Source: Hydra vulgaris (taxonomy: Eukaryota > Cnidaria > Hydrozoa > Anthoathecata > Hydridae). From it: a DNA stretch of 64,000 nt. This document shows, piece by piece, positions 11,401 through 28,264 of the stretch. Position 1 is the first letter of the stretch; the number at the start of each line of letters is the position of its first letter. The stretch is from contig NC_088920.1 in assembly GCF_038396675.1 (NCBI RefSeq), positions 64,735,001 to 64,799,000 on the forward strand. The letters run 5' to 3'. A program made the translations under genes and the position numbers. The notes below the pieces were generated by a model. That model did no database searches and was not told the origin of the DNA. It was given only the letters and a program-made list of their open reading frames with translations.

Positions 11401-11594
11401 TTAACTTGTTTCATATCCTTCAAAGTCATCATCGTCGTTTAACTCTATCTGATAAGGGAGACCATCGCCATTTTTATTATAACTTTGTTTTAATCGTCTT
11501 CTAATGAAGAAAACAGCAACAACAACGAATAGAACAAATAGAATACAAACGATAGGCACCAATGTTTTTACTAAGATAGTGCTAGGTGGTTTTG
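11401..11594 (-). CDS. Exon 9 (transmembrane helix, cytoplasmic tail, stop)
   Basis: Acceptor TTTTTAG before 11594; stop TAA at 11403-11401. Encodes TKPPSTILVK, the helix TLVPIVCILFVLFVVVAVFF, stop-transfer RRRLKQ, and a 33-residue tail with DDDDFEGY. I saw no clean AATAAA on the minus strand just downstream. Confidence 0.85.

Positions 11595-28264: not shown

What the first reader, a model, noticed from the sequence alone, without database searches (positions are those of the whole stretch)
11401..28264. Undescribed nine-exon type I membrane protein reconstructed from raw sequence
Nine minus-strand exons, some as small as 31 and 80 nt, join with matching phases into exactly 489 codons plus stop. 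The product has a signal peptide, N-glycosylation sites, 14 ectodomain cysteines, one transmembrane helix and an acidic 33-residue tail. I cannot place it in a known family, so it may be a lineage-restricted receptor or surface protein.
Basis: partly seen in the sequence, partly recalled or inferred. Interest (0 to 1): 0.8.

Follow-up and report, generated by a model that had tools for sequence, protein, structure and literature searches.

The report
Orphan Hydra membrane-protein gene family
The nine-exon gene is real: it encodes an already catalogued but unstudied Hydra membrane protein, one of three family members found in its genome, and what its outer part looks like and does is still unknown.

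Summary
Nine minus-strand GT-AG exons (28264 to 11401) join into 1470 nt, 489 codons plus stop. The product equals, over 489/489 aa, a public protein, [quoted passage not shown]: catalogued, unnamed. A 508-aa relative of unnamed species (40% identity) matches six exons clearly and two weakly, and shares all 14 ectodomain cysteines.

New here: two diverged paralogues, a tandem pair about 35 Mb away on the same chromosome, with the same 14 cysteines and five of the eight introns (a sixth seen by its acceptor only). The pair is under purifying selection (dN 0.32, dS 0.81). Five answered whole-genome searches gave no confirmed fourth member. A 15-residue tail stretch is 13/15 identical in the 508-aa relative, against 8/31 in stalk plus helix, but is not kept in the paralogues (4/15, 1/12).

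Pfam, NCBIfam and PDB sequence searches place nothing in a known family. Best reading: a disulfide-rich, perhaps lineage-restricted, cell-surface receptor or adhesion protein whose tail docks a cytosolic partner; ligand, localisation and role untested.

The parts
28265..28268 (-). acceptor-like AG (28268-28267) two bases before the start codon (ttttctag|ca|ATG): possible spliced-leader trans-splice site or end of an upstream 5' UTR intron
   Evidence: sequence; that Hydra adds spliced leaders to at least one third of genes is from passages of PMC7986045; use here is inferred
28234..28264 (-). exon 1 (31 nt): start codon and first part of the hydrophobic N-terminus (putative signal peptide), ends in phase 1
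   Evidence: not matched separately by P0002
26723..26929 (-). exon 2 (207 nt): block M1, first part; C21, C31, C46; sequon N35
   Evidence: same exon in both paralogues
25562..25641 (-). exon 3 (80 nt): block M1, middle; sequon N81
   Evidence: weak separate match to P0002 (E 0.077)
20733..20862 (-). exon 4 (130 nt): block M1, end; C138
   Evidence: weak separate match to P0002 (E 0.67)
15892..16128 (-). exon 5 (237 nt): block M2, first part; C166, C179, C194
   Evidence: fused with exons 6 and 7 in both paralogues
15529..15705 (-). exon 6 (177 nt): block M2, end; C238, C263, C285
14943..15274 (-). exon 7 (332 nt): block M3, first part; C290, C300, C322; sequons N299, N303
11897..11978 (-). 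exon 8 (82 nt): block M3, end; C425
11401..11594 (-). exon 9 (194 nt): stalk, transmembrane helix, 33-residue cytoplasmic tail with the G-x-GLPYQIEL-x-DDD stretch (residues 468-482) conserved in P0002, stop
15706..15891 (-). intron 5 (186 nt, phase 1), absent from both paralogues
15275..15528 (-). intron 6 (254 nt, phase 1), M2/M3 border, absent from both paralogues

Best explanation
This is an intact Hydra gene for a single-pass type I membrane glycoprotein, LOC100211712, one of three members found of a gene family in this genome. Shown: exon chain, single C-terminal hydrophobic helix, cysteine skeleton conserved in a diverged relative and two paralogues, tail stretch conserved in that relative only. 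Inferred: the protein reaches the cell surface, its ectodomain folds as three disulfide-stabilised blocks (about 138 aa each) that bind an extracellular ligand or a partner on another cell, and the tail stretch GLPYQIEL-DDD docks a cytosolic adaptor (signalling or sorting). Steps by confidence: real gene 0.98; type I membrane protein 0.9; receptor or adhesion role at the surface 0.5; tail as docking site 0.5.
For: Identity with a public Hydra vulgaris protein over 489/489 aa. P0002 aligns separately to six exons at E 7.5e-4 or better and weakly to exons 3 and 4; its 508-aa frame is uninterrupted on a contig of at most 1830 nt, as expected of a spliced transcript (transcript origin inferred). 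All 14 ectodomain cysteines invariant in 4 of 4 proteins. The window/P0002 pair and the paralogue pair are homologous over each block by profile comparison (E 1.6e-9, 2e-14, 3.4e-12 for M1, M2, M3). Introns 2, 3, 4, 7, 8 agree in phase, and in place within about two residues, in three genes; a phase-1 acceptor stands where intron 1 ends. Paralogue pair dN 0.32, dS 0.81 over 459 codons. Tail stretch 13/15 identical to P0002 versus 8/31 in stalk plus helix and 55/131, 62/136, 54/139 in the blocks.
Against: No transcript, proteomic, localisation or fold data were available. The NCBI model is itself a prediction from the same species, so its identity is not independent proof of transcription; isoform X1 was not seen. 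The tail stretch is only 4/15 in paralogue A and 1/12 in B, so it is not a family-wide feature. N-terminus not flagged by the hydropathy scan. First exons of the paralogues not found. The protein search has limited reach (one search missed a known relative).
Confidence: 0.6

Rival explanations
1. It is a diverged immunoglobulin-superfamily recognition protein of the kind of Hydractinia Alr proteins, whose Ig domains are hard to see by sequence: three Ig-like domains, one helix, a short tail, acting in cell-cell recognition.
For: Local tandem duplication (paralogues A and B) in a hydrozoan and a similar overall layout (layout of Alr proteins recalled). Passages of PMC11067881 say individual Alr proteins have low overall sequence identity and that domain architecture with AlphaFold predictions confirms them as Ig superfamily.
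Against: No Ig profile hit for the four proteins, nor for the 9 of 12 blocks scanned alone. 14 cysteines in a 4-6-4 pattern with 91-109 residues between the last two of M1 and of M3 is not the pattern recalled for Ig domains. Only three members found.
Confidence: 0.12
2. It works inside the secretory pathway as a cargo or sorting receptor, the tail carrying trafficking information, and is not a surface signalling protein.
For: The tail is short and its conserved stretch ends in an acidic cluster, which recalls sorting signals (recalled, no call).
Against: No known lumenal cargo-receptor domain listed by Pfam; the tail stretch is not kept in paralogue B (1/12) while the ectodomain cysteines are.
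Confidence: 0.2
3. It belongs to a widespread animal family whose fold is known, and only sequence divergence hides it. This can be true together with the best explanation.
For: The best tool for this, structure prediction, could not be run. The block motif C-x8..12-C-x13..24-C (spacings) with a following beta-like stretch reminds me of unnamed invertebrate ectodomains (recalled, untested).
Against: No PDB sequence below E 0.28 with P0001, the A1-A3 profiles, M2 of paralogue A or M3 of paralogue B. Pfam hits of P0001 and P0002 are below their cut-offs; P0001's four all lie on the helix region.
Confidence: 0.4
4. The exon chain is an artefact of reading raw sequence, or the gene is a pseudogene.
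For: AT-rich sequence offers many chance splice sites; a first trial with exon 8 two bases longer already broke the frame.
Against: as above.
Confidence: 0.01

Closest known systems
Hydra vulgaris uncharacterized protein LOC100211712 isoform X2 (NCBI; P0001)
   Same: Identical over 489/489 aa; it is this gene.
   Different: Nothing in sequence; it carries no function or precomputed Pfam domain and no paper in the library names the locus (0 papers).
Unnamed 508-aa protein P0002 (source 'lgn', contig of at most 1830 nt)
   Same: 40% identity over 93%, 15 shared cysteines including one in the helix, same tail stretch.
   Different: Species not named by the source; 7 sequons against 4.
Hydractinia Alr allorecognition proteins (Ig superfamily)
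   Same: Hydrozoan genes that occur in clusters; ectodomain, helix and tail (layout recalled).
   Different: No Ig profile match; different cysteine layout (Ig pattern recalled); only three genes found. Alr facts from passages of PMC11067881; the primary paper (PMC9546547) is not held.
Class 1-1 modular extracellular proteins of animals
   Same: In the window gene each of M1 (139 codons), M2 (138), M3 (138) is flanked by phase-1 introns, the class described in passages of PMC8001218.
   Different: The blocks are not shown to be homologous to each other or to any known module; the M2/M3 intron is missing in the paralogues.

Membership tests
Type I single-pass membrane protein | one C-terminal hydrophobic helix after a cysteine-bearing ectodomain, basic stop-transfer residues after it | tested here: met
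   hydropathy and sequence; RRR follows the helix; a weaker hydrophobic stretch at 185-206 is read as ectodomain
Type I single-pass membrane protein | cleaved signal peptide | tested here: inconclusive
   no predictor at hand; N-terminus by eye only; KD scan at 1.6 did not flag it
Immunoglobulin superfamily / Alr-like | Ig-domain sequence profile | tested here: not met
   Pfam scans of four proteins and of 9 of 12 separate blocks (not scanned alone: M3 of P0002, M1 and M2 of paralogue B)
Immunoglobulin superfamily / Alr-like | Ig sandwich fold | not testable with these tools
Class 1-1 modular extracellular protein | each block flanked by phase-1 introns | tested here: inconclusive
   met in the window gene, but 6 of its 8 introns are phase 1, and in the two paralogues M2 and most of M3 share one exon
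Class 1-1 modular extracellular protein | blocks are homologous repeats | tested here: inconclusive
   M1-M2: two-sequence profile z 4.5, 0 of 60 shuffles; 4 of 16 sequence pairs exceed 2.66, the largest of their 16 reversed controls; but four-sequence profile z 0.27, 58 of 200 shuffles as good, and nothing left with cysteines masked; hhalign probability 1.9% with two and 0.6% with four sequences. M1-M3: z 1.1 (8 of 60), 2.11 (15 of 200), 4 of 16 pairs above their reversed maximum 1.65. M2-M3: z 0.06 (25 of 60), 1.49 (22 of 200), 0 of 16 above 3.46 (same calls)
Same gene family (window gene, P0002, paralogues A and B) | homology over all three blocks, 14 shared cysteines, shared introns | tested here: met
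   introns compared in the three Hydra genes only
Lineage-restricted (orphan) family | no homologue outside the lineage | tested here: inconclusive
   two proteins among 4368 and 6613 candidates; pattern scans of IMG/VR and GTDB contigs matched 176 and 101 stretches, none a relative by tblastn; no other cnidarian genome could be searched; one search shows limited reach

The most novel reading that the evidence does not exclude
A hydrozoan-restricted family of surface receptors built on an ectodomain fold not yet described, with three cysteine-linked blocks, that split before Hydra and the P0002 species parted into a branch whose cytosolic tail is held nearly constant and a tandem pair whose tail is free to change.
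Probability: 0.25. Interest if true: 0.6.

Novelty: new member of a known kind. Interest (0 to 1): 0.36.

Why it matters
Taxonomically restricted genes, many with secretion signals, are a known feature of cnidarians, and in Clytia some affect development when knocked down (passages of PMC4169000). This case supplies a defined three-gene family with gene models, an invariant 14-cysteine skeleton and a precise 15-residue tail stretch to mutate, so a vague orphan becomes testable. It would matter most if a structure showed a new fold, or if the family mediates cell recognition in Hydra.

Tried and rejected
Known-family placement by Pfam, NCBIfam and PDB sequences: nothing. P0001's Pfam hits on the helix region (Insulin_TMD and three others, all below cut-off), P0002's (Psg1 E 0.0023 and others, below cut-off) and RTT107_BRCT_6 on M1 of paralogue A (E 0.0092, below cut-off) were rejected. 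For whole paralogues A and B the listing gives best E-values (lowest 0.0033) but neither cut-offs nor positions.

Internal repeats: I first took M1 and M2 as duplicates. The four-sequence profile and its cysteine-masked control, reversed controls and hhalign weaken this, so it is reported as open.

A NAGNAG acceptor before exon 7: the second AG would put a stop at the junction (read), so it is not an in-frame variant.

No further copy of the gene was found in the window itself. The match C4:8333529-8333783 (E 0.9) was not followed and not counted. Exon 1 of paralogues A and B: a script over 6 kb gave only poor candidates. A codon-bias scan of the window for other genes listed six stretches in transposon-like frames but missed this gene's own nine exons, so it says nothing about other genes.

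Literature: alone named the locus (0 papers); nine other searches were by topic, only their listings were seen, and no listed title was about this gene. Five papers were seen as found passages, none in full.

Full report
What was checked. The minus strand of 11000-29500 was read and the nine exons rebuilt. With the donor of exon 8 set at 11897 the chain is 1470 nt, 489 codons plus stop, all introns GT..AG, intron phases 1,1,0,1,1,1,0,1. My first trial with exon 8 two bases longer broke the frame.

Is it real? A search of about 5.8 billion proteins returned two proteins at E <= 10 among 4368 candidates; the two-sequence profile returned the same two among 6613. P0001 is identical over all 489 residues and carries the NCBI name uncharacterized protein LOC100211712 isoform X2 [Hydra vulgaris]. 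P0002, 508 aa, 40% identity over 93%, comes from a source that names no species, on a contig of at most 1830 nt. An open 508-codon frame on so short a contig suggests a spliced transcript (inference). tblastn of P0002 against the window hit eight of the nine exons separately: six at E 2e-17 to 7.5e-4, exon 3 at 0.077, exon 4 at 0.67, which is near the first chance matches (1.2); exon 1 is not hit. All 14 ectodomain cysteines and C442 in the helix are shared.

The family. The window lies at G000:C1:64735001-64799000 of a 911.5-Mb assembly in 15 contigs. Searching it with P0001 gave nine matches: eight of the nine exons of this gene and one new place, C1:30070186-30070827 (25% identity, E 1.9e-10), in a 275-aa open frame. 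That frame used as query found a second new place at C1:30104221-30104964, 53% identical to it, and a weak unconfirmed match on C4 (E 0.9). Reading 69 kb around the two gave two further genes on the same strand, paralogue A (30087794-30068078) and B (30119053-30101162), each with six exons from the second exon on; their first exons were not identified. Queries with A and B (from exon 2 on) and P0002 found no further member. The search scores only its best candidates, so very diverged members could be missed. No further copy was found in the window.

Paralogues A and B are 53.6% identical to each other over 459 aligned residues and 23-25% to P0001 and P0002 over 437-449. Profile comparison of the window/P0002 pair with the A/B pair is significant for each block. 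Introns 2, 3, 4, 7 and 8 have the same phase in all three Hydra genes and lie at the same place within about two residues; where intron 1 ends, A and B have a phase-1 acceptor, but the exon before it is unknown; introns 5 and 6 exist only in the window gene. Loss of two neighbouring introns in the A/B ancestor or two gains in the window gene would both explain this; not resolved. The window gene is closer to P0002 than to A/B, so the split is older than the separation of Hydra from the P0002 species, if P0002 is the orthologue (inference). A versus B: dS 0.81, dN 0.32 over 459 codons by a Nei-Gojobori script; dN 0.31-0.33 in every part, dS 0.55 (helix and tail) to 1.02 (M3): purifying selection.

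Anatomy. Exon 1 starts the hydrophobic N-terminus; exons 2-4, 5-6 and 7-8 give three blocks M1, M2, M3 of 139, 138 and 138 codons in the window gene; exon 9 gives stalk, helix and tail. Cysteines fall 4-6-4 and are invariant in four of four proteins. [quoted passage not shown] here 6 of 8 introns are phase 1, so the symmetry alone is modest evidence. Whether the blocks are repeats of one another is open. For M1-M2: two-sequence profile z 4.5, 0 of 60 shuffles, and 4 of 16 sequence pairs above 2.66, the largest of their reversed controls. Against: four-sequence profile z 0.27, 58 of 200 shuffles as good, and no signal once cysteines are masked; hhalign probability 1.9% with two and 0.6% with four sequences. 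For M1-M3 the signs are weak (z 1.1, 8 of 60; z 2.11, 15 of 200; 4 of 16 pairs above 1.65), for M2-M3 weaker (z 0.06, 25 of 60; z 1.49, 22 of 200; 0 of 16 above 3.46). Same-block positive controls gave z 7 to 15.

The tail. Residues 468-482 (G-x-GLPYQIEL-x-DDD) are identical at 13 of 15 positions to P0002, while stalk plus helix is 8 of 31 and the blocks 55/131, 62/136, 54/139. Paralogue A keeps 4 of 15, B 1 of 12. So the stretch is constrained in the window/P0002 branch only. A cytosolic docking role is the simplest reading; no partner was tested.

What it is not, as far as tested. P0001 and P0002 reach no Pfam or NCBIfam cut-off. For whole paralogues A and B Pfam lists nothing below E 0.0033, cut-offs not shown. 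Of 12 blocks, 9 were scanned alone: no hit at its cut-off. No PDB sequence came below E 0.28. Two-pattern scans of viral and prokaryote contigs gave no relative. A protein search with residues 165-300 of P0002 returned only itself although the Hydra protein is about 45% identical there (62/136 in M2), so that negative is uninformative.

Best explanation and limits. A surface glycoprotein with a disulfide-rich ectodomain that binds something outside and a tail that binds something inside is the most economical account. Ligand, partner, cell type and even surface localisation are unproved. The locus name LOC100211712 is in 0 of 5.39 million open papers; nine topic searches listed no paper about this gene; most subscription journals are not held.

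Verdict. It is catalogued but uncharacterised, belongs to a family of at least three genes, and has no recognised relative beyond P0002 in what could be searched. Interest is moderate: a clean orphan receptor-like family, new in detail but of a familiar kind unless its fold proves new.

Noticed in passing
window 21629-23742 (-), in intron 3: LINE-type reverse-transcriptase sequence over three open frames; RVT_1 in two of them (E 8e-23 and 7.5e-4), none in the third.
   Followed up: partly
window 18919-20307 (+), in intron 4: A second reverse-transcriptase element on the opposite strand (RVT_1 E 5e-13 in 18919-19440).
   Followed up: partly
window 28916-28988: Near-perfect hairpin (35 pairs, -58.5 kcal/mol, z -14.7) about 650 nt upstream of the start codon; only microRNA hits below their gathering scores. 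Either a foldback transposon remnant or a hairpin RNA source.
   Followed up: partly
window 18344-18409, in intron 4: Second long perfect hairpin, 30 pairs.
   Followed up: partly
window 21119-21295, in intron 3: Perfect 25-nt minisatellite, 7.1 copies at 100% match.
   Followed up: no
window 35997-37125: About 1.1-kb element with 25-nt inverted terminal repeats (92% complementary) holding an 89-nt perfect inverted repeat (36035-36123 / 36492-36580).
   Followed up: no
window 37567-40639: DNA transposon remnant with 41-nt inverted ends (80% complementary) around a frame with a weak DDE_3 hit (39148-39498, E 7.7e-4, below cut-off).
   Followed up: no
window 46016-46078 (+) and 10944-10978 (+): tRNA-like stretch (Rfam tRNA 26.2 bits, below its cut-off of 29) with a second copy at 3 mismatches: looks like a tRNA-derived SINE.
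   Followed up: partly
window 60856-61076: Exact tandem duplication with a 121-nt period (1.8 copies) beside a transposase-like frame.
   Followed up: no
window 8282-10652 (-): Frames that remind me of zinc-finger/hAT-type transposase proteins (recalled) begin 748 nt beyond this gene's stop codon on the same strand; no Pfam hit at 0.01 for the two larger frames.
   Followed up: no
L017 1120-1190 (G000:C1:30101120-30101190): The end of paralogue B's coding frame and its stop lie in a short direct duplication (about 31 nt), which may be how its tail was shortened (read).
   Followed up: no
L016 (G000:C4:8333529-8333783): Weak match (28% over 85 aa, E 0.9) to M3 of paralogue A in a 353-aa open frame; possible distant member, unconfirmed.
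   Followed up: no
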